Shown one piece after another: positions 45,609 to 60,161 of a stretch of 64,000 nucleotides of DNA. The DNA comes from Candidatus Methanoperedens sp. (lineage in GTDB: Archaea; Halobacteriota; Methanosarcinia; Methanosarcinales; Methanoperedenaceae). Positions within the stretch are counted from its first letter, which is position 1; every line of letters begins with the position of its first letter. The stretch spans positions 1 through 64,000 of the forward strand of contig VEPN01000011.1 of assembly GCA_012026835.1 (NCBI GenBank), in the 5' to 3' direction. Made by a program: the position numbers and the translations under genes. The notes beneath the pieces are model-generated. The model worked only from the letters and a program-made list of their open reading frames with translations. It did not search any database and was not told the DNA's origin.

Positions 45609-48323
45609 ATGGATGAGATACAGCTAACGGTTGCGAAAGCATACCCGAACGATTCAGGAAGAGGGATAGCGCGTCTTGACCCGCACACATTGATGGTGTT
45701 GCAGCTTACGCCTGGAGATATCGTAGAGATAGAAGGCAAGAGGCGTACATCTGCAAAAGTATGGCGCGCCGACCGGATAGACTGGGACCAGGAGATAATA
45801 CGTATCGATGGTTTCATAAGGCAGAATGCAAGCGCAGGTATCGGTGATTCTGTAAAGATAAAAAAAGCCGAGGTTAAGATCGCAGATAAAGTGGTTCTTG
45901 CGCCGCCTGAAGGCACATCCATCCAGTTCGGGGGTGAAGCCGAGGATATGGTAAAGCGGCAGATAATGAAACGCCCGATCACCAAAGGTGATATTATTCC
46001 TGTAATGAGTACAATGGCCCATCCTTTCCTCGGGCGCGTGGTAACTGGCCAGACCATTCCCCTGATCGCCATCGAGGCAGAGCCTGAAGGGGTAATCCTG
46101 ATCACAGAAGAGACAGACATCAAGCTTCGGGAAAAGCCCGTGGTGGTTGATGTCACAGGGACAGGGATAACCTATGAGGACATCGGCGGTTTAAGCGAAG
46201 AGATCCAGCGCCTGCGTGAGATGATTGAACTGCCATTGAAACACCCCGAAGTATTTGAAAGGCTGGGAATCGAATCACCAAAAGGAGTATTGATGTACGG
46301 TCCTCCCGGGACAGGGAAAACCCTGATAGCCAGGGCAGTGGCGAATGAATCAGGCGCAAACTTCTGTTCCATAGCCGGCCCTGAGATCATGAGCAAGTAC
46401 TACGGTGAGAGCGAACAGAGGCTGCGTGAGATTTTCGAGCAGGCAAAAAAAGATGCCCCATCCATTATTTTCATAGACGAACTGGATTCCATTGCTCCCA
46501 AAAGGGAAGAGGTGACCGGGGAGGTCGAAAGGAGGGTCGTGGCGCAGCTCTTAACAATGATGGACGGCATGGAAGAGAGGGGGCAGGTAGTGGTTATAGG
46601 GGCAACGAACCGCATCGATGCCATAGACCCCGCGCTTCGCCGCCCGGGCAGATTTGACCGCGAGATAGAAATTGGGGTGCCTGACCAGGCTGACAGGCTT
46701 GAGATCCTCCAGATACATTCGCGGGGCATGCCGATTTATCACTGGGAAAACGATATCGCGGAAAAAAAACTTGCAGAAAGGATTACGTCCTTTGAGGTTA
46801 ATTCTAAAGGGCGCATATCTGAAAACACTTTGAAGATCGAAATCCTGGAATCTGAAAAGAGTAAAATTGAAAATGAAATAAAAGAGATAAAAGATGAACA
46901 GGAGAAACAGGGTCAACTGAAACAATTGAAATCCAGGATTGAGGACCTGGAAAAAAATATCGTAACTCATAAGAATAACAATAAAAAGTTAGAGAAAGAA
47001 ATCCATTCGATTAATAAAATTAATGAAACATTAAAGGAAAAAAGAAACATTCTCGAAGCCATATTGGCCGACATAAACGAGATCAGGCAAACAAGCGAGA
47101 GGGAACTTGAAGATGTTTCCATTACATTTTCGGAAAAACATATCAAACAAAAAGATAAAAAAATCAGGGAGATAGAAGAAACCCTTTTTGAGTCAGGCGT
47201 GATCTCAGATAGTTATTTCAAGAAGGTTATTGAAGATTCCGCCCCGCATATGCTTGAACACTTCGCTTCTGTAACACATGGGTTCGTGGGAGCCGATATA
47301 TCGGCTCTTGTACGCGAGGCTGCTATGAAAGCACTTCGGAGATATCTTCCCCAGATAAAACTTGATGAAGCGGTTCCGCGCGAATTACTTAATAGCATGC
47401 AGGTGAAAGCAAGTGATTTTGAAGAAGCTTTGAAGGATGTCGAGCCTTCGGCGATGAGAGAAGTGATGGTCGAGATCCCGAAGGTTGCATGGGAAGACGT
47501 GGGTGGCCTTGATGAAGCAAAACAGGAGATTATAGAGGCTGTGGAATGGCCTCTTAAAAGACCTGAGAAATTCAGGAAAATGGGAATCAGGCCCCCGAAA
47601 GGAATTCTACTTTACGGCCCGCCGGGCACTGGCAAAACACTTCTTGCCAAGGCTGCTGCTAATGAAAGTTCGGCCAATTTCATAAGTATAAGGGGCCCGC
47701 AGCTTTTATCCAAATGGATAGGGGAATCAGAAAAGGCCGTGCGCGAGGTTTTCAAGAAAGCCAGGCAGGTTGCGCCATCAATACTGTTCCTTGATGAGCT
47801 TGATGCGATTGCACCTATCAGGGGCATGGATTTTGGCTCGAAAGCATCTGAGCGTGTTGTTAACCAGCTGTTGACCGAGCTTGATGGAATTGAAGTCCTG
47901 AAGAATGTCGTGGTGATAGCTGCGACGAACAGGCCCGAGATTGTCGATCCTGCACTTATCCGTTCTGGAAGGTTCGACAGGCTGGTTTTTGTGGGCCCGC
48001 CTGCAAGGGCCGAGAGGGTGGAGATATTCAGGATACACCTGAAAAATATCCCGCGCTCAGATGATGTGAACCTGGAAGAACTCGCTGATCTTACCGATAA
48101 TTATGTGGGATCGGATATTGAATCTCTATGCAGGGAAGCTGTGATGCTGGCACTGCGGAAAGATTTCGATGCTGAGAATGTTGAAATGAGGCATTTCCGC
48201 GACTCTCTGAAGAAAGTCAGGCCTGCACTCGTGGAAGGCATGATTGAATATTATGAGAAGCTGCAGGAGCAATTCAAAGGCGGGACAAAACAGGAACAGA
48301 AGTCTTATATAGGTTATAGGTAA
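45609..48323 (+). CDS. cdc48: CDC48/VCP-type AAA+ ATPase with a coiled-coil insertion in D1
   Basis: An archaeal unfoldase that feeds substrates to the proteasome. Residues 1-185 are the CDC48 N domain ([20 protein letters not shown]). D1 has GPPGTGKT at about 231 and [13 protein letters not shown]2 has GPPGTGKT at about 670 and [12 protein letters not shown]. Relatives are about 730-760 residues; this one is 904 because about 165 extra residues (roughly 376-550) split the D1 lid between HSRGMP and [14 protein letters not shown]. The insertion is charged and heptad-like ([20 protein letters not shown]), so a coiled coil. GAGGGGA and a TATA-like CTATATAT lie upstream. Confidence 0.95.
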
Positions 48324-51182: not shown

Positions 51183-51905
51183 ATGCATGCATACATAAAC
51201 GAGATTTTTAATTCCGTACAGGGCGAAGGTCCTTATGTAGGCGTGCGCCAGGTATTTGTGCGTTTTGCACAATGCCAGTTGCATTGCGCATACTGTGATA
51301 CTCCTCTTTCCCGTAATATCCCCCGGCTCTGCAGGGTTAAGAGAAACCTGAAAGATTCCTATTCTATTAAAAATCCGATAGGAAGGGGTGAGCTTGAAAA
51401 ACAGGTACATAAGTTATGGACTCCTTCGACAAGACACATAAGCCTGACAGGGGGAGAACCCCTCATCCACGCGGATTTTATCAGGGAGCTTGAACTGGAA
51501 TATCCGTTATATCTTGAAACCAATTCCGGATTCCCGGATAAAGCAAGAGAATTGCGGGACATGATCGCGATAGCTTCATGCGATATCAAATTACCTGAGC
51601 ACGATTCGACTGACCATTACGAAGAATTGCTTGCAAATGAGCTTGAGACCATTTCCATATTCAACAGGACAGCAGAGACCTTTGTGAAAATTGTGATTCT
51701 TCCTAAAACCACAAAGGAATCCATATCTCCTGCTGTTTCAGGTATCGCCTCAATAGACAGGAGTATTCCTCTCATCCTCCAGCCAGCGACACAAGAAAAA
51801 ATAGTACCAAGAGGATTGCTGTTGGAGTTGATGGATTTTGCAGGAGAAAAATTAAAGGATGTGCGTGCGATACCACAAACGCACAAGATGCTGGGACTTC
51901 CCTAA
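51183..51905 (+). CDS. queE: 7-carboxy-7-deazaguanine synthase-like radical SAM protein
   Basis: A 240-residue radical SAM enzyme of the QueE family, a step in making the deazaguanine precursor of archaeosine in tRNA. It begins NEIFNSVQGEGPYVGVRQVF and has FAQCQLHCAYCDTPL, the C-x3-C-x2-C site for the 4Fe-4S cluster, then HISLTGGEPLIHADFI and a C-terminal ILQPAT. It starts 20 bp after ftsZ and overlaps a convergent lipoprotein gene by 4 bp. Confidence 0.88.
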   Translation: MHAYINEIFNSVQGEGPYVGVRQVFVRFAQCQLHCAYCDTPLSRNIPRLCRVKRNLKDSYSIKNPIGRGELEKQVHKLWTPSTRHISLTGGEPLIHADFIRELELEYPLYLETNSGFPDKARELRDMIAIASCDIKLPEHDSTDHYEELLANELETISIFNRTAETFVKIVILPKTTKESISPAVSGIASIDRSIPLILQPATQEKIVPRGLLLELMDFAGEKLKDVRAIPQTHKMLGLP

Positions 51906-53812: not shown

Positions 53813-56368
53813 TTACCTTGTGATCACAATCACAGCATTTCCAGCCTCAAGGACATCTACAGCTTTTCCTTTTAGAAGCATTTCTTTCTCTAAAATAAAG
53901 CAGGAAGGGTCAAGAGTAATATTCTCTCCTTCAATCTGAACTGTGACGCTTCCAGACGCGGCAAGACCGGGGTTGGTATTGGTAAGCGCTTCGGCAATGG
54001 ATTTTGCCTTATTCCTGTATGTCTTTCCAAGAACCTTCATGTTGGGCTTGATGCCGATGGGCGCAAATTCAAAATCAGGTGTTCCGATCTTAAGCCTGAT
54101 TTCCGTATTGGCAGCCCCCGCTATGTCGGATGCATCGGTTATTGTGGAATAAATCTCAATCTCCCCGAGCGGCGCATTCAATGCCATGCCGTGTTCGGAT
54201 TTATAGCGCCTGATGGCTGCTGTTATTTCTTTAATCAATTCACCCGCAGCTTCTGCGTTCTGGTCGATAAGAGACTCGTCCGCCTGCGGCCATGCCTGCT
54301 GATGGACGCTTCCCTCTCTTAAATGTGAATATACCTCTTCAGAGAAGTAAGGAAGGAAAGGCGCAAGAAGCCTGGAAAGGGTTTCGATGGTAATAAATAG
54401 TGTGTAACGGGCAGCATTCTTTCCCTCACCATCGCCGTACAGCCTCGATTTTGCAAGCTCGATATAGTTGTCTGCAAGTATGTCCCAGGCAAATCCCCTG
54501 ACAGCCTTGAAGGTTTCATCGAACTGGTATGCATCCATCTTTCCTGTGGATTCTTTTACAAGCCTGTTCAATTTGCTGAGGAGCCAGAGGTCAACCGGTG
54601 TAAAGGTAGCAGGCTCGTCAGAGATGTGGGGCAGGGAGAAGCGTACAATGCTCCAGAGTTTTTGCAGGAAGCGCGAACCTGCCACCACGTCCTTCCATGA
54701 AAATATGATGTCCGACCCGGTAGTGCCGCCGATTGCCGCCCACTGCCTGAAAGCATCAGCGCCATACTGCTTGATGACCTCTTCAGGCACAACAAAGTTA
54801 TTTCGGGATTTGCTCATCTTGTGGCCGTCCTCGCCAAGCACCATGCCATTGAGCAGGATGGTATCCCACGGCTTGGTCCCAAGAAGTGCCTTTGATCGAA
54901 GTATAGTGTAAAAAGACCATGTGCGGATAATATCATAACCCTGCGGGCGAAGCTGCGTCGGTAAAAGGAGCGGCCGATCGCTTAGCCAACCTGCGACATG
55001 AAGCGCGGAAATAGATGAGTCCATCCAGGTATCAAGTACGTCCTCTTCCCCCCGGAATTCCGTGGAACCGCATTCGCATGCCGCAGGAGGGGCCTTTTGT
55101 GTGGGGTCAAGGGGAAGCCATTCTTCTTTTGCCACCTTGGTTTTCCCGCACTCCCTGCAATACCAGGCTGGAATTGGCGTGGCAAATATCCTCTGTCTTG
55201 AAATGCACCAGTCCCATTCCATCGTCCCTGCCCAGTTCTCAAGCCTGACTTTCATGTAATCCGGTACCCATGTCACCTGATTGGCGGTATTGAGGATGTC
55301 TTCCTGTATTATCCTGACGAACCACTGCCTTTCTGACAATATCTCTATGGGCGTTTTGCATCGCCAGCAAAGACCCACATTCTGGGGGAGCTTTTCCTGC
55401 TTGTAAAGAACGCCTGCTTTCTTCATGTCCTCGATTATGGCTTTCTTGCATTCCACCGTGTTCATGCCTTCATATTTGCCTGCAAGTTCAGTCATTTTCC
55501 CGGTCTTATCGATGGCTTTGCGCAGAGGCAGTTTATGTTCAACCCACCACCTGACGTCCTGCTTGTCGCCGAAGGTGCATATCATGACAACACCAGTACC
55601 GAAAGAGGGGTCAACGCTTTTATCAGCAATGACCCTGACCCTGTGGCCGAATACCGGCACTTCGACCTCGGTGTCTACATACCCGCTGTATCTTTTATCA
55701 TCAGGGTTAACTGCGACAGCAACGCAGGCAGCAAGCAGTTCGGGTCTTGTGGTTGCAATCTTGAGTTTGTCAAAATTAAGGTAATTAAGGATTGTGTCCC
55801 TTGAGTCGTATTCGACTTCGGCAAAAGCGATCGCGGTCTCGCACCTCGGACACCAGTTCACGGGATGGTTCTGCTGGTATATCATATCATTCTCATACAT
55901 CTGCACGAACGACTTCTGGGTCTTTCCGAAATAAGCGGGTTCCATCGTTATGTACTCGTTGCTCCAGTCTATGGAAAACCCGAGGCGCCGCAGGCTTTTT
56001 CTCATCCGGCCTATGTTCTTTTCCGTAAGCTCAACGCACAGGCGGCGGAACTCCTCGCGCGAGACCTGGCTCTTTGTGATGCCGTGCGCCTCTTCAACCT
56101 TAACCTCTGTCGGGAGGCCGTGGCAGTCCCAGCCTTCGGGGAACATCACGTTGTAACCATGCATCCTCTTATAGCGCGCCACGAAATCGATATAACACCA
56201 GTTAAGGGCATTGCCGATATGGAAATTCCCTGTGGGATAAGGGGGAGGCGTGTCGATTATGAACCGCGGTTTTTGCGAATCCCAGTCAAAATAATACATG
56301 GAATCCTGCCATGTGTTCAGCCATTTTTCTTCGATGGTATTATAATCGTATTCTTTCGGGAGTTCCAT
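53813..56368 (-). CDS. valS: Valyl-tRNA synthetase
   Basis: Charges tRNA(Val). The 851-residue class I enzyme begins [20 protein letters not shown], has the HIGN nucleotide-binding motif near residue 52, [14 protein letters not shown], an editing (CP1) domain with [19 protein letters not shown] and the KMSKS loop near residue 518, then an anticodon-binding domain. Length is near the archaeal norm. No C-terminal coiled-coil arm is visible. The following stretch 56369-56754 has no supported gene. Confidence 0.94.
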
Positions 56369-56754
56369 ATCCCGCTCTGATTACCTGCATGATTAATAGA
56401 ATTATCGGTTTTGGGGAAGATTTACTTGTCATTTATTATCTAACATGTCCTGTCTAGAGTTTTATAAGATTCTTATTCGGTCTTCTCACCTTAATTCCGA
56501 CAAGTGCAACTATCAGAACTAATCGTATAGGGCTTCTATATGTTCTCCTAATAGTATCTTGAAACAATTCAAATTTCTATATGGTTCTTGTATCTGAGAG
56601 TAAACCAGTGATAATAAACCTTGTCTCCTTAAGATAATCTTCAAAACAGCCTTTGCCATCAACTTTAATAACGTCTCATCAACAAGCTATCATCTCCCAA
56701 AGTTTTTTATATTTAATAATCATACTATAACTATTAAACAACTATTAAATAATT

Positions 56755-56904
56755 ATGAACAAAGGGAAAGGAGAATTTAAGCACTATGGGTATGAGGTCC
56801 TTATCAAAACCGCAAAAAAACAAGGTAAAAAAAGTACAAGCTGTAATGTATATGTCCCATCAGATTGGGAAGGGAAAAAGGTAGTAGTTATTAGGGTTGA
56901 ATGA
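56755..56904 (+). CDS. DUF2080-like small protein (transposase-associated/antitoxin-like)
   Basis: ATG 56755 encodes 49 residues: a short lysine-rich start with a GYEVLIKTAKKQGK segment, then SCNVYVPSDWEGKKVVVIRV and a final E. The vYvPk.W.GK.V.vi.i pattern is that of DUF2080 proteins, found beside transposases and in archaeal toxin-antitoxin settings. Upstream lies the near-repeat ACTATTAAACAACTATTAAAT and a TATA-like TTTTATATTT, so it may regulate the island that follows. It is too short for family certainty. Confidence 0.6.
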   Translation: MNKGKGEFKHYGYEVLIKTAKKQGKKSTSCNVYVPSDWEGKKVVVIRVE

Positions 56905-56928
56905 TAGGAACAGGAGAAATTGTAACAT

Positions 56929-57531
56929 ATGGTTGAATATATTGAAAAGGAAGCCGAAATGAAAGATGATAATGAAGATCCAAAGCAAAAAGGTCTTGAA
57001 AATCTTATTCTTCTTGTTCTTGGAATAGTAGACAGAAAGATTTCTTTTTTACATTTGGAAAAAGAAGTATTTCTCTTGTGGAATTTCCATCCAAAAATAA
57101 AGCCTTTTTTGAATTTTATTAAACATTATCGAGGCCCCTATTCAAAAGAAATACAAGAGGCTATACAAGATCCTGTTTATTTTGAAAATCATTGGATTTA
57201 TAGCCCACCACCTAAAGGAGATAAACTAAGTGGAGGTTATGTTGAATTAACCGATGCGGGAAGAAATGAGTACGAAAGGCTTTCAGAAATTATCAAAAAT
57301 AATGATGAATTATTGCATTTGTTTACCGGAATAAAAATAGTTAGGGAATTATATGATAAGTTAACCTTAAAAGAACTTCTTTTGCTTATTTACAATACTT
57401 ACCCAGAATATATTGAAAGGTCAAATGTGTATAAAGATATTTTTAAAGATAAAAAGGCATTAGCCGATGGTTTGATAAAAAAGGGGTTAATAGATACTGA
57501 AAGATACGAGTCTCTTCTTGGAGGGAATTAA
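56929..57531 (+). CDS. Winged-helix-like protein (Panacea/DUF4065-like), first gene of a three-gene island
   Basis: A 200-residue protein. LENLILLVLGIVDRKISFLH leads into LEKEVFLLWNFHPKIKPF, FIKHYRGPYSKEIQEAI and GGYVELTDAGRNEYERL. This order of helix, RGPYS and LT.AG segments resembles the Panacea/DUF4065 architecture used by antitoxins, but the match is from memory. The C-terminal part (LTLKELLLLIYNTYPEY) is helical. It ends 2 bp before the PIN-like gene. AT-rich, as is the island. Confidence 0.7.
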   Translation: MVEYIEKEAEMKDDNEDPKQKGLENLILLVLGIVDRKISFLHLEKEVFLLWNFHPKIKPFLNFIKHYRGPYSKEIQEAIQDPVYFENHWIYSPPPKGDKLSGGYVELTDAGRNEYERLSEIIKNNDELLHLFTGIKIVRELYDKLTLKELLLLIYNTYPEYIERSNVYKDIFKDKKALADGLIKKGLIDTERYESLLGGN

Positions 57532-57533
57532 TA

Positions 57534-58118
57534 ATGGAAGAAGGTATCGTACCAGATTCATCATTTTACATTTGTTTTGCCAATGACTTAAAAAGAAGAG
57601 AATGGCTTTACGAGCTCGCAAATCTATATCCCGTCTATATAGGAAAAAGAATTTTAAAAGAAATATTCAAGGAAGTATCAGATGATAAGGATTTTCTTTC
57701 AACAGTTAAAATAATAGATTTTGATTATTATGAACTTATAAAACCCTATTTTGGAAGAAACGAGATGCATATTGATGATGGAGAATATGAGGCTATAGGT
57801 ATCGCTCATTTTCTTGTAATTAAAGGCTACTTAAGATATTTAATAATAGACGAAACACGAGCAAGAAATTTTGTTAATAGGCATTTTCCAAGCTTAACAG
57901 ATAAAATGGTTGGTACAATCGGTTTTTTAAGAGATGGTTGCTGTAAAGATAAAAAAATAAGCGCATTAAAAGTCCTTGGAATACTATATGCAATAAAAGA
58001 AACTGTGGATTCTGGAAAAATAAATAGACCTTGTAGCATGGATACCAAAAGTTATAATAATATACTAATCCCTACTATAGAAATGATTAATAAAATTAGC
58101 AGGGATTATGATGAGTGA
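57534..58118 (+). CDS. PIN-like nuclease (DUF3368 type)
   Basis: A 194-residue protein with PIN-type blocks: VPDSSFYICFANDL (first Asp), YPVYIGKRILKEIFKE, DDGEYEAIGIAHFLV (Glu), YLIIDETRARNFVNRHF (Asp) and VGTIGFLRDGC. The sequence DE...ARNF and vGTiGfL is diagnostic of the DUF3368 group of VapC-like ribonucleases. It is followed by a gene that overlaps its end by 11 bp, so the three are one operon. Nuclease activity is inferred. Confidence 0.72.
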   Translation: MEEGIVPDSSFYICFANDLKRREWLYELANLYPVYIGKRILKEIFKEVSDDKDFLSTVKIIDFDYYELIKPYFGRNEMHIDDGEYEAIGIAHFLVIKGYLRYLIIDETRARNFVNRHFPSLTDKMVGTIGFLRDGCCKDKKISALKVLGILYAIKETVDSGKINRPCSMDTKSYNNILIPTIEMINKISRDYDE

Positions 58119-59409
58119 ATTTGATCCGCATATAAATAAACATATATTGAATAAGGCAAAGGACTGTTCTGTTTATAATGTTAAAGAAATTGAAATAGAA
58201 CATTCGAATAAGAAAATTGAGGCACCTTACAAAGTTTTAGAAGGAAAGAAAATCAATAAAGAAAATGCTACTTGGTTAACAGAAAATATTGAAACGCCAA
58301 TATTTGAAAGCGGAGCTTATGTTTCACAGTATAGGAGTTGGAATAAATTATACTATCTTCTCGAAGAGGCAGAAGAGACACAAACAAGCGGACTAGATGA
58401 TTTCTTGGGTCTTAGGAAAAAATTGTGGGATTCAAGTTTAACTACGGTCTCTTTCGTTTTTGCAAAGAATCCTTTTATAGAGAATGTATTTGGTACTGAA
58501 GAGGGAAAAAAAAGTTTACCACCTTTAGATAAAGATAGTTACGATAGCTTATTGGATTATATAGATGCTGCATCAAAGGCTTTGATTTTATCACCTGATA
58601 TAAGAATAAAAGGACGAGAAAAAACAATAACTATAGACGAGTATATAAAGTTCGTTGATCATAGTATCAAAGTTCTTTCTGAATTTAATAAAAAGCCAAT
58701 ATTTGCACCCATACAAATACATTTATCTCAAAAAAACTTGAAAAAAATTCTGATGCATTATAAAAAGCAAAAATATACGAATATCTGGGTTAATTTCAAT
58801 GCCAACAATATTGGGGGCACATATTTTTCGAGACTTAAAACCTTACATAGACTTATAAATAAGATCATGGGGTTAGAAAATGTAACTCTTTATTTTTCCA
58901 ATATCAAAAAAGAGATTAATCCTCATATTAAAGATGAAAAAGTGGTAGGTTCTGACATTTTATCCCCTTTTTTTGCAGCAGATTTTATTGGAGTTACGAG
59001 AGAACCTCAGAGAGTAATAGATGAAAATCAAGATGAGAGGATAAAACAACTTGTTATGAAGGGAGAATTCAAAAGCAAGGAAGATTATGAAGAATCTCTT
59101 AAACTCCACAAATCAAGAATACTCGACCCTGAGAGTTATTACTACTACAAAATCGATAAGTATCCCCACAAATTAAATTTTGATAAAAACTCTCTTTTAG
59201 ATAATACCCAACTAAATAAACTACTGAATAGTGTTATCATTTATGAAGAGGTAGAAAAAACGAAAAAATTCGTAGAAGAACAAAAAAATATAAAACCATA
59301 TTTGAAAAACAAAAAAGCCCTTAATGAAACCGGAGTAATAAAAGATCTTCCCATAGAAGGAAGTGGAAAGATGCCAAGCAAGATTTATGATTTCCTTGGC
59401 GGGCTTTAA
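58108..59409 (+). CDS. Unrecognised 433-aa protein, third gene of the island
   Basis: No family could be named. It has a charged N-terminus, FESGAYVSQYRSWNKLYYLL, LWDSSLTTVSFVFAKNPF, then alternating strands and helices (PIFAPIQIHLSQKNLKKIL, TNIWVNFNANNIGGTYFSRL, NVTLYFSNIK, SDILSPFFAADFIGVTREP) that could form a TIM-barrel-like fold; a distant likeness to tRNA-guanine transglycosylases is only an impression. The last 120 residues are Lys/Glu-rich and end KIYDFLGGL. Overlap with the PIN-like gene means they are made together. Confidence 0.75.
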   Translation: MMSEFDPHINKHILNKAKDCSVYNVKEIEIEHSNKKIEAPYKVLEGKKINKENATWLTENIETPIFESGAYVSQYRSWNKLYYLLEEAEETQTSGLDDFLGLRKKLWDSSLTTVSFVFAKNPFIENVFGTEEGKKSLPPLDKDSYDSLLDYIDAASKALILSPDIRIKGREKTITIDEYIKFVDHSIKVLSEFNKKPIFAPIQIHLSQKNLKKILMHYKKQKYTNIWVNFNANNIGGTYFSRLKTLHRLINKIMGLENVTLYFSNIKKEINPHIKDEKVVGSDILSPFFAADFIGVTREPQRVIDENQDERIKQLVMKGEFKSKEDYEESLKLHKSRILDPESYYYYKIDKYPHKLNFDKNSLLDNTQLNKLLNSVIIYEEVEKTKKFVEEQKNIKPYLKNKKALNETGVIKDLPIEGSGKMPSKIYDFLGGL

Positions 59410-59481
59410 ATGAGTGGCTGATTAAACTCAGAGTTTTGAGTTCTATTCAATATTCCTCAACGTAACGGTACATGTTGTACA

Positions 59482-59494
59482 AAATAATATATAC
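59482..59494 (+). promoter_or_regulatory. TATA box of hdrCBA
   Basis: AATAATATATACT lies about 35-47 bp before the hdrC ATG and is followed by an AT-rich start region. The ribosome site CGAGGTT sits 3-5 bp before the ATG at 59529. Confidence 0.4.
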
Positions 59495-59528
59495 TATTAA
59501 ATCTACAAGTGTTTTCCTCCGAGGTTAA

Positions 59529-60161
59529 ATGAGAAAAGAAACCATCCTCCCGGAATCCAAGGATACCGCATTCAGGGATCTTATCATAAAATCGCCGGGC
59601 GGCGAGAAGATACCCACATGCATGCAGTGCGGGATATGTGCGGGTTCATGTCCGGTCAGCCACGAAATGGATTATACCCCGCGCCAGCTTGTTCGCATGA
59701 TACAGCTTGGTCTCAGGAAAGAAGTCCTGAACAGCAACACCGTCTGGATTTGCACCACATGCTTTTCATGCTCTGTGCGCTGTCCCAGGGGAATACACCC
59801 GACAGAGCTTATGGAAACGTTAAAACCCATTGCCATGTCTGAAGGCATCAGGAACAAGAACGCAAAATTCGATAATGTTTTTTCCGATGTGATAAAGAAG
59901 AACGGAAGGGCTTCAGAATTCCTGCTGATATCGAAATACAGCCTTTCTGAGCCTGGAATGATAAAACAGGCTCCATTCGGCTTTTCCCTGTTTTCCAAAG
60001 GAAAACTGCCCCTGTCTGTCGATAAAATGGAAGATACAGGCGAACTGGATGCGATTTTTAAACTCGGTGAAAAAACGGAAGAAAAAGCAGAAACAAAAAC
60101 AAATCCCGGGAAAAAAGAGACCGGGGAAAAAGAAAATGCAGAGCCGGAGACTGAAAAATGA
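59529..60161 (+). CDS. hdrC: Heterodisulfide reductase subunit C
   Basis: The electron-relay subunit. The 210-residue protein has two 4Fe-4S motifs, CMQCGICAGSCPVSHE and CTTCFSCSVRCPRGIHP, then ELMETLKPIAMSEGI. The last 40 residues are a Lys/Glu tail (EKAETKTNPGKKETGEKENA) not usual in HdrC and probably disordered. hdrB starts within its last codon (ATGA overlap). Confidence 0.94.
   Translation: MRKETILPESKDTAFRDLIIKSPGGEKIPTCMQCGICAGSCPVSHEMDYTPRQLVRMIQLGLRKEVLNSNTVWICTTCFSCSVRCPRGIHPTELMETLKPIAMSEGIRNKNAKFDNVFSDVIKKNGRASEFLLISKYSLSEPGMIKQAPFGFSLFSKGKLPLSVDKMEDTGELDAIFKLGEKTEEKAETKTNPGKKETGEKENAEPETEK

What the first reader, a model, noticed from the sequence alone, without database searches (positions are those of the whole stretch)
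56929..59409. Candidate undescribed three-gene system: winged-helix-like protein, DUF3368-type PIN, and a 433-aa unknown
Seen: three AT-rich genes 2 bp apart or overlapping by 11 bp, between valS and hdrC, unlike the neighbours in composition. The middle protein has PIN/DUF3368 blocks (DDGEYEAIG, IDETRARNF, VGTIGFL), the first a Panacea-like layout, the third an unrecognised mixed alpha/beta protein of 433 residues. Inference: a toxin-antitoxin or anti-phage operon in which the PIN protein is the nuclease, the first the sensor or antitoxin and the large one the specificity or target-binding unit. I know of no described system with this set.
Basis: partly seen in the sequence, partly recalled or inferred. 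Interest (0 to 1): 0.7.

Follow-up and report, generated by a model that had tools for sequence, protein, structure and literature searches.

The report
Archaeal PIN toxin with TGT-like partner
Three small neighbouring archaeal genes (a probable antitoxin, an RNA-cutting enzyme, and a protein folded like a tRNA-modifying enzyme but apparently stripped of its catalytic site) are inherited together across many archaea, often beside anti-virus genes, and probably form an undescribed self-poisoning defence module.

Summary
In detail: three AT-rich genes (A 200 aa, B 194 aa, C 433 aa; 2-bp gap, 11-bp overlap; ~30% GC) between valS and an hdr cluster. Profile searches find C in 29 of 394 genomes drawn from the phylum. 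A-B-C occurs as a unit in 26 loci (22 co-directional, 4 with C divergent). Gene distances correlate (r 0.87-0.93), and the three genes are under purifying selection in close pairs. C has no sequence match in Pfam, NCBIfam, PADLOC or PDB, but AlphaFold models of two members ~18% identical both retrieve tRNA-guanine transglycosylases (TGT) first. The TGT nucleophile position is Gly/Ala/Ser and the zinc motif is absent in all 27 sequences, so C looks like a pseudo-TGT. B is a DUF3368-type PIN with its acidic site kept. A is distantly DarG-C-terminal/Panacea-like. In 2-3 loci B is replaced by another PIN. In three loci the PIN gene alone is broken while A and C stay intact, as expected of a toxin. 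13 of 29 loci lie beside type I RM or DUF499/DUF1156 genes, against 0 of 38 random same-genome segments. Best reading: a three-part PIN toxin-antitoxin or abortive-defence module; C's role is inferred. I found no description of the set.

The parts
56929..57531 (+). Gene A, 200 aa: winged-helix-like protein distantly related to the DarG C-terminal domain / Panacea group; proposed antitoxin or regulator
   Evidence: Profile A8 vs PDB: 7yk3_B DarG, E 1e-4 (A2). PADLOC PDC-M19A in 26/26 and DarG in 21/26 members. Pfam SocA_Panacea below cut-off. K45, F48, G69, P70, Y155 invariant.
57534..58118 (+). Gene B, 194 aa: DUF3368-type PIN nuclease; proposed toxic effector
   Evidence: D8 and D106 invariant in 21 homologues; E43 and E84 near-invariant. 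The B of L041 passes Pfam DUF3368 (28.0 bits, cut-off 27.3); those of L110, L106 and L037 score below. NCBIfam VapC toxin weak, E 0.09.
58108..59409 (+). Gene C, 433 aa: TGT-fold (beta/alpha)8 protein without the TGT nucleophile or zinc motif; proposed nucleic-acid-recognition subunit
   Evidence: AF2 pLDDT 74, pTM 0.80; Foldseek PDB ranks 1-28 all TGT, best E 4.1e-8. Second member modelled gives TGT at ranks 1-15. Collinear but weak profile-profile alignment to TGT. No Pfam, NCBIfam, PADLOC or PDB sequence match.
56755..56904 (+). 49-aa DUF2080-family transposase-associated ORF just upstream of A; probably a mobile-element trace, not part of the module
   Evidence: NCBIfam NF033496 E 1.5e-8, 34.1 bits over cut-off 22; Pfam DUF2080 weak, E 0.038.
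56712..56738 (.). 13-nt imperfect inverted repeat (85%, 1-nt spacer) upstream of the cluster; possible operator, may be chance in AT-rich DNA
   Evidence: the repeat finder I1; no functional evidence.

Best explanation
The three genes are one conserved conflict module of the PIN toxin-antitoxin / abortive-defence kind. B is a DUF3368-type PIN endoRNase and the toxic effector. A is the winged-helix protein, of the DarG-C-terminal/Panacea kind, that holds B in check and probably regulates the operon. C is a catalytically dead TGT-fold protein that gives the complex nucleic-acid recognition, most likely tRNA or other structured RNA, so that the PIN cuts a defined target when the block by A is lifted during infection or when a neighbouring restriction system is disabled. 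Shown by computation: gene content, co-inheritance, order, purifying selection, intact PIN acidic site, TGT fold with loss of TGT catalytic motifs, PIN-specific decay and replacement, enrichment in RM/BREX-related islands. Inferred: A neutralises B, C binds RNA (tRNA best guess), the trigger, and the antiviral outcome.
For: Unit: 26 A-B-C triplets; Mantel r 0.87 (A-B), 0.93 (A-C), 0.92 (B-C), 0 of 5000 permutations as high, n=24. Selection: dN/dS 0.07-0.25. PIN site: D8/E43/E84/D106. PIN replacement: C-A followed by a Pfam-PIN protein of another type in L037 (1874-4065) and L113, perhaps also L115. PIN-only decay with A and C intact: premature stop in L109, internal deletion in L107, transposase insertion in L114; no locus with an intact PIN and free flanks lacks A. 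Fold of C; nucleophile column Gly/Ala/Ser and no CxCx2C in 27 of 27. Islands: 13/29 loci beside HsdRMS, DUF1156, DUF499, SNF2-NOV or Eco57I genes against 0/38 controls, Fisher p 2.7e-6 (Pfam identities). Backup RNase effectors, PIN included though uncommon, are described in BREX and DUF499 loci (PMC12839542).
Against: No experiment. About half of the loci, the window included, are not beside RM genes. Sequence profiles support the TGT relation only weakly (hhalign probability 5%, P 0.008), so it rests on AF2 models of moderate confidence (pLDDT 70-74) and Foldseek (TM 0.5-0.57). C is broken in L104 and L029 with the PIN ORF open, and occurs alone in haloarchaea (L111, L112, L117), so C is not strictly tied to the PIN. 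The invariant E67 of C could mean an active enzyme rather than an adaptor. Island queries were taken from the case loci (own locus left out), and some loci are close relatives.
Confidence: 0.6

Rival explanations
1. Restriction-modification-like system: C is an active base-modifying or base-exchanging enzyme of a new type that marks self nucleic acid, and A+B cut what is unmarked.
For: C has a TGT-type fold, a fold used for DNA modification by DpdA in Dpd systems (PMC12839542, PMC6884629). E67 is invariant, and D283 and D292 nearly so, down to 11% identity. C is divergently transcribed in 4 loci and stands alone in haloarchaea like an orphan modification gene.
Against: The TGT nucleophile column is Gly/Ala/Ser in 27/27 and the zinc motif is absent. 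No deazaguanine-pathway genes were noticed beside the unit in the relatives read.
Confidence: 0.15
2. Sensor module: C binds modified nucleic acid or another infection signal and acts as the trigger that frees B from A, rather than as target selector.
For: The TGT fold suits a nucleobase or 7-deazaguanine pocket. An EVE-domain gene lies directly downstream in L031 and an ASCH-domain gene beside the unit in L037. Repeated insertion inside BREX-related and type I RM loci.
Against: The residues of the TGT substrate pocket are not conserved in C. EVE/ASCH neighbours in only two loci.
Confidence: 0.25
3. Ordinary PIN toxin-antitoxin addiction pair (A-B) on a mobile element, with C an accessory gene, for example a second regulator.
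For: Patchy distribution (10 of 238 genomes of the class). Low GC and the DUF2080 ORF beside it. C broken in L104 and L029. DUF3368 PINs are known toxin-antitoxin components (general knowledge).
Against: C is present in 26 triplets and kept with A when B is swapped or broken. C evolves in step with A and B and is under purifying selection.
Confidence: 0.2

Closest known systems
DUF3368-type PIN toxins (VapC-like type II toxin-antitoxin; PADLOC candidate PDC-S70)
   Same: B has the DUF3368 motif layout and PIN acidic site; small overlapping genes with a winged-helix partner.
   Different: Partner is not a canonical VapB-type antitoxin; a nearly always present third, TGT-fold gene; PADLOC has no model that matches C.
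Panacea (PanA, DUF4065) and DarG C-terminal antitoxin domains
   Same: A shows remote similarity to the DarG C-terminal structure 7yk3 (E 1e-4) and sub-threshold Panacea hits in G451. Panacea pairs with many unrelated toxins (PMC8832971), like the PIN swapping seen here.
   Different: Window A has no Panacea hit; no DarG macrodomain or DarT gene seen; accompanied by a TGT-fold protein.
tRNA-guanine transglycosylases (TGT, arcTGT, QTRT1) and DpdA
   Same: Fold of C, order of strands, TP motif, GxD motif and C-terminal Asn.
   Different: Nucleophile Asp replaced by Gly/Ala/Ser, no zinc motif, weak sequence similarity; the genome has its own three TGT-family genes elsewhere.
Dpd DNA-modification systems and BREX-related capture (BRC) systems with TGT
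   Same: A TGT-fold protein in a defence setting (PMC12839542).
   Different: Those encode TGT/DpdA with DpdB/C or with HerA, PglZ and GNAT; here a pseudo-TGT with A and a PIN.
RNase effectors lodged in type I RM and BREX/DUF499 loci (PrrC, PARIS, HEPN; PrrC from general knowledge)
   Same: The unit repeatedly sits within or beside type I RM and DUF1156-DUF499-SNF2 operons.
   Different: No ATPase sensor of its own; a PIN with a TGT-fold partner.

Membership tests
Type II PIN toxin-antitoxin | Toxin and antitoxin genes adjacent and co-directional, co-inherited | tested here: met
   A-B adjacent in all 26 triplets, A-B distance correlation 0.87
Type II PIN toxin-antitoxin | Toxin with PIN acidic active site | tested here: met
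   D8, E43, E84, D106 all conserved in 19 of 21 aligned B proteins; L108 (N/Q) and L104 (E43 to G) deviate
Type II PIN toxin-antitoxin | Toxicity and neutralisation by the partner | not testable with these tools
   Indirect only: PIN-specific gene decay
DUF3368 (PF11848) | Match above Pfam cut-off | tested here: inconclusive
   Window B: none. B of L041: 28.0 bits over cut-off 27.3; B of L110 26.6, L106 22.2, L037 19.4 below
Panacea (PF13274) | Match above Pfam cut-off | tested here: not met
   No hit at the window; best A-type hits in G451 19.1 and 17.5 bits, cut-off 25.7
DarTG | DarG macrodomain plus DarT | tested here: not met
   Only the region matching the DarG C-terminal part is present; no macrodomain hit in A
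TGT family | TGT (beta/alpha)8 fold | tested here: met
   Two models, TGT first in PDB fold searches
TGT family | Nucleophile Asp (Z. mobilis D280) and zinc site CxCx2C | tested here: not met
   Gly/Ala/Ser at the aligned column, motif absent in 27/27; the mapping rests on a weak profile alignment
TGT family | Significant sequence similarity | tested here: inconclusive
   hhalign P 0.008, probability 5%; no Pfam TGT hit
Dpd / BRC systems | Catalytic DpdA/TGT with DpdB-C or HerA/PglZ/GNAT partners | tested here: inconclusive
   C lacks the catalytic motifs; partners not noticed among neighbours read, no dedicated search made
PADLOC PDC-M19 | M19A plus M19B | tested here: not met
   A matches M19A in 26/26; M19B hits in 16 genomes lie far from the units

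The most novel reading that the evidence does not exclude
A new class of archaeal defence module in which a catalytically dead tRNA-guanine transglycosylase fold has been recruited as the guide that delivers a PIN ribonuclease to a specific tRNA (or as the sensor of modified nucleic acid), under control of a Panacea/DarG-like winged-helix protein, and used as a fail-safe inside restriction-modification and BREX-related loci.
Probability: 0.35. Interest if true: 0.85.

Novelty: new variant of a known kind. Interest (0 to 1): 0.66.

Why it matters
If right, an RNA-modification fold has been turned into a target-recognition or sensor subunit of a toxin. That would link tRNA modification to antiviral self-poisoning in archaea, add an unnamed system (C has no family in Pfam, NCBIfam or PADLOC) to archaeal immunity, and give a concrete way to ask how PIN RNases gain specificity. 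The natural experiments already present (PIN swapped or broken with the rest kept) make the roles directly testable.

Tried and rejected
Close-relative searches for C in plasmids and phages and for C or A in viral contigs found nothing; one haloarchaeal plasmid carries a lone C. The genome-contig scan gave one locus (L011). MacB-like matches of C to PDB (E 0.06) rejected as chance because they vanish with the profile. Empty-site test failed: valS does not lie within 1.5 kb of hdrC in any of the 27 other hdrC loci of the genus. E67 was first taken by eye as the TGT D102 position; rejected because the profile alignment and strand order put it on strand 2. PDC-M19 membership rejected. Papers searched with ten term sets; none returned describes the combination as far as read. 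Bacteria could not be surveyed beyond one scan of genome contigs.

Full report
What is there. The three ORFs exist at the stated coordinates with the stated spacing in a stretch of about 30% GC between genes of 45-53% GC. valS and the hdr genes were recognised by reading their sequences. A 49-aa DUF2080 transposase-associated ORF precedes A, and a 13-nt inverted repeat lies at 56712-56738.

Is it a unit? A single-protein search with C in 394 genomes of the phylum gave 10 genomes. Nearly all of these loci carry A and B upstream in the same order. A 13-sequence profile raised this to 29 of 394 genomes and 20 of 136 genera. Reading the neighbourhoods with iterated profiles gives 26 A-B-C triplets: 22 co-directional with overlapping or nearly touching ORFs, and 4 (L107-L110) where A-B and C are divergent. 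Pairwise distances of the three proteins correlate at 0.87-0.93, never reached in 5000 permutations (this does not separate co-inheritance from shared species phylogeny, but the distribution is patchy). Nei-Gojobori dN/dS in close pairs is 0.07-0.25 where it could be computed.

What the proteins are. B: D8 and D106 invariant, E43 and E84 nearly so, in 21 homologues. The window copy does not reach Pfam DUF3368, but the B of L041 does (28.0 bits, cut-off 27.3) and others come close. A: best structural relative by sequence profile is the DarG C-terminal domain structure 7yk3 (E 1e-4). PADLOC DarG matches 21 of 26 members and candidate PDC-M19A matches 26 of 26; Panacea matches stay below cut-off. 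C: no family in Pfam, NCBIfam or PADLOC. AF2 on nine sequences gave pLDDT 74, pTM 0.80, and Foldseek against the PDB returned TGTs at ranks 1-28, E 4e-8 to 5e-6, before other TIM barrels at 8e-6 and weaker. A second model, of a member about 18% identical (pLDDT 70, pTM 0.68), again gave TGTs at ranks 1-15. The two models share alignment rows and are not wholly independent. hhalign with 27 sequences gives a full-length collinear alignment to archaeal TGTs but with low significance (P 0.008, probability 5%). In it the TP motif, the GxD motif and the C-terminal Asn (N374, invariant in C) correspond, the nucleophile Asp falls on G295 (Gly/Ala/Ser in all 27), and no sequence has the zinc motif. C is therefore best described as a TGT-fold pseudo-enzyme; E67, P163 and N374 are invariant and D283 and D292 nearly so.

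Which gene is the toxin? Three natural experiments point to B. In L107 and L109, close relatives, the PIN gene is disrupted in different ways (an internal deletion and a premature stop) while A and C are intact and 92-96% identical. In L114 a transposase gene interrupts the PIN gene that follows C-A. In L037 (1874-4065) and L113 the DUF3368 PIN is absent and a PIN of the general Pfam PIN family follows C-A instead (the L113 match is below the Pfam cut-off); L115 has an unassigned 216-aa gene in that place. No locus with an intact PIN and sequence on both sides lacks A. C is less strictly kept: truncated in L104, frameshifted in L029, and alone in haloarchaea (L111, L112, plasmid locus L117). 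Sequencing errors in draft genomes could explain some of these breaks.

Setting. Type I RM genes flank L026, L037, L101, L102 and L106. DUF1156 methylase, DUF499 ATPase and SNF2-NOV helicase genes flank or enclose the unit in L031, L041, L107, L109, L110 and L113, in L041 and L113 inside the operon. Eco57I-type methylases lie beside L100 and L115. With own-locus queries left out, 13 of 29 loci against 0 of 38 random 14-kb segments of the same genomes carry such genes (Fisher p 2.7e-6). Query choice and relatedness make this p-value optimistic. DUF499-centred loci were named BREX-related systems in 2026 (PMC12839542), where backup RNases, PIN included, are noted, but the passages retrieved do not mention a TGT-PIN-winged-helix module.

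Mechanism. I propose that B is the effector RNase, A its antitoxin and regulator, and C a nucleic-acid-recognition part derived from a tRNA enzyme, so that lifting the block leads to targeted RNA cleavage and growth arrest during infection. The first two assignments follow from family knowledge plus decay and replacement patterns; the third is inference from fold. Rivals are C as active modifier, C as trigger sensor, and an ordinary PIN pair with an accessory gene.

Limits. Bacteria were barely sampled; no experiment; two structure jobs; no complex model. The window copy itself is not in a recognisable defence island.

Noticed in passing
window 45609-48323 (+): CDC48/VAT-like AAA ATPase of 904 aa that seems to carry a long charged, coiled-coil-like insertion after the first ATPase domain; seen by reading only.
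   Followed up: no
window 51183-51905 (+): QueE-like radical SAM gene of the preQ0 pathway about 5 kb from the TGT-fold gene; probably coincidence, since archaeosine is a housekeeping tRNA modification.
   Followed up: no
L111:5760-7516, L112:5506-7160, L117:8001-9685: In haloarchaea C stands without A or B, tail to tail with a conserved ~155-aa gene, next to an Orc1/Cdc6-like gene in L111 and L112.
   Followed up: partly
L037:902-8720: Two units close together: a C-A-PIN version (with an A-like protein fused to a DUF488-looking part upstream and an ASCH gene downstream) and a canonical A-B-C, with an HsdS gene between them.
   Followed up: partly
L107, L109, L114: PIN gene broken in three loci (internal deletion, premature stop, transposase insertion) while A and C are intact.
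   Followed up: yes
L104 (C gene), L029 (C gene): C interrupted by an in-frame stop (L104) or frame shift (L029) with the PIN ORF open; pseudogene, error or recoding not resolved.
   Followed up: no
window 56368-59529: valS-hdrC adjacency is peculiar to this genome: none of 27 other hdrC loci of the genus has valS within 1.5 kb.
   Followed up: partly
PADLOC PDC-M19A and PDC-S70: These uncharacterised candidate defence families resemble A (26 of 26 members) and DUF3368 PINs such as B; some PDC-S70 models match A-type proteins.
   Followed up: partly
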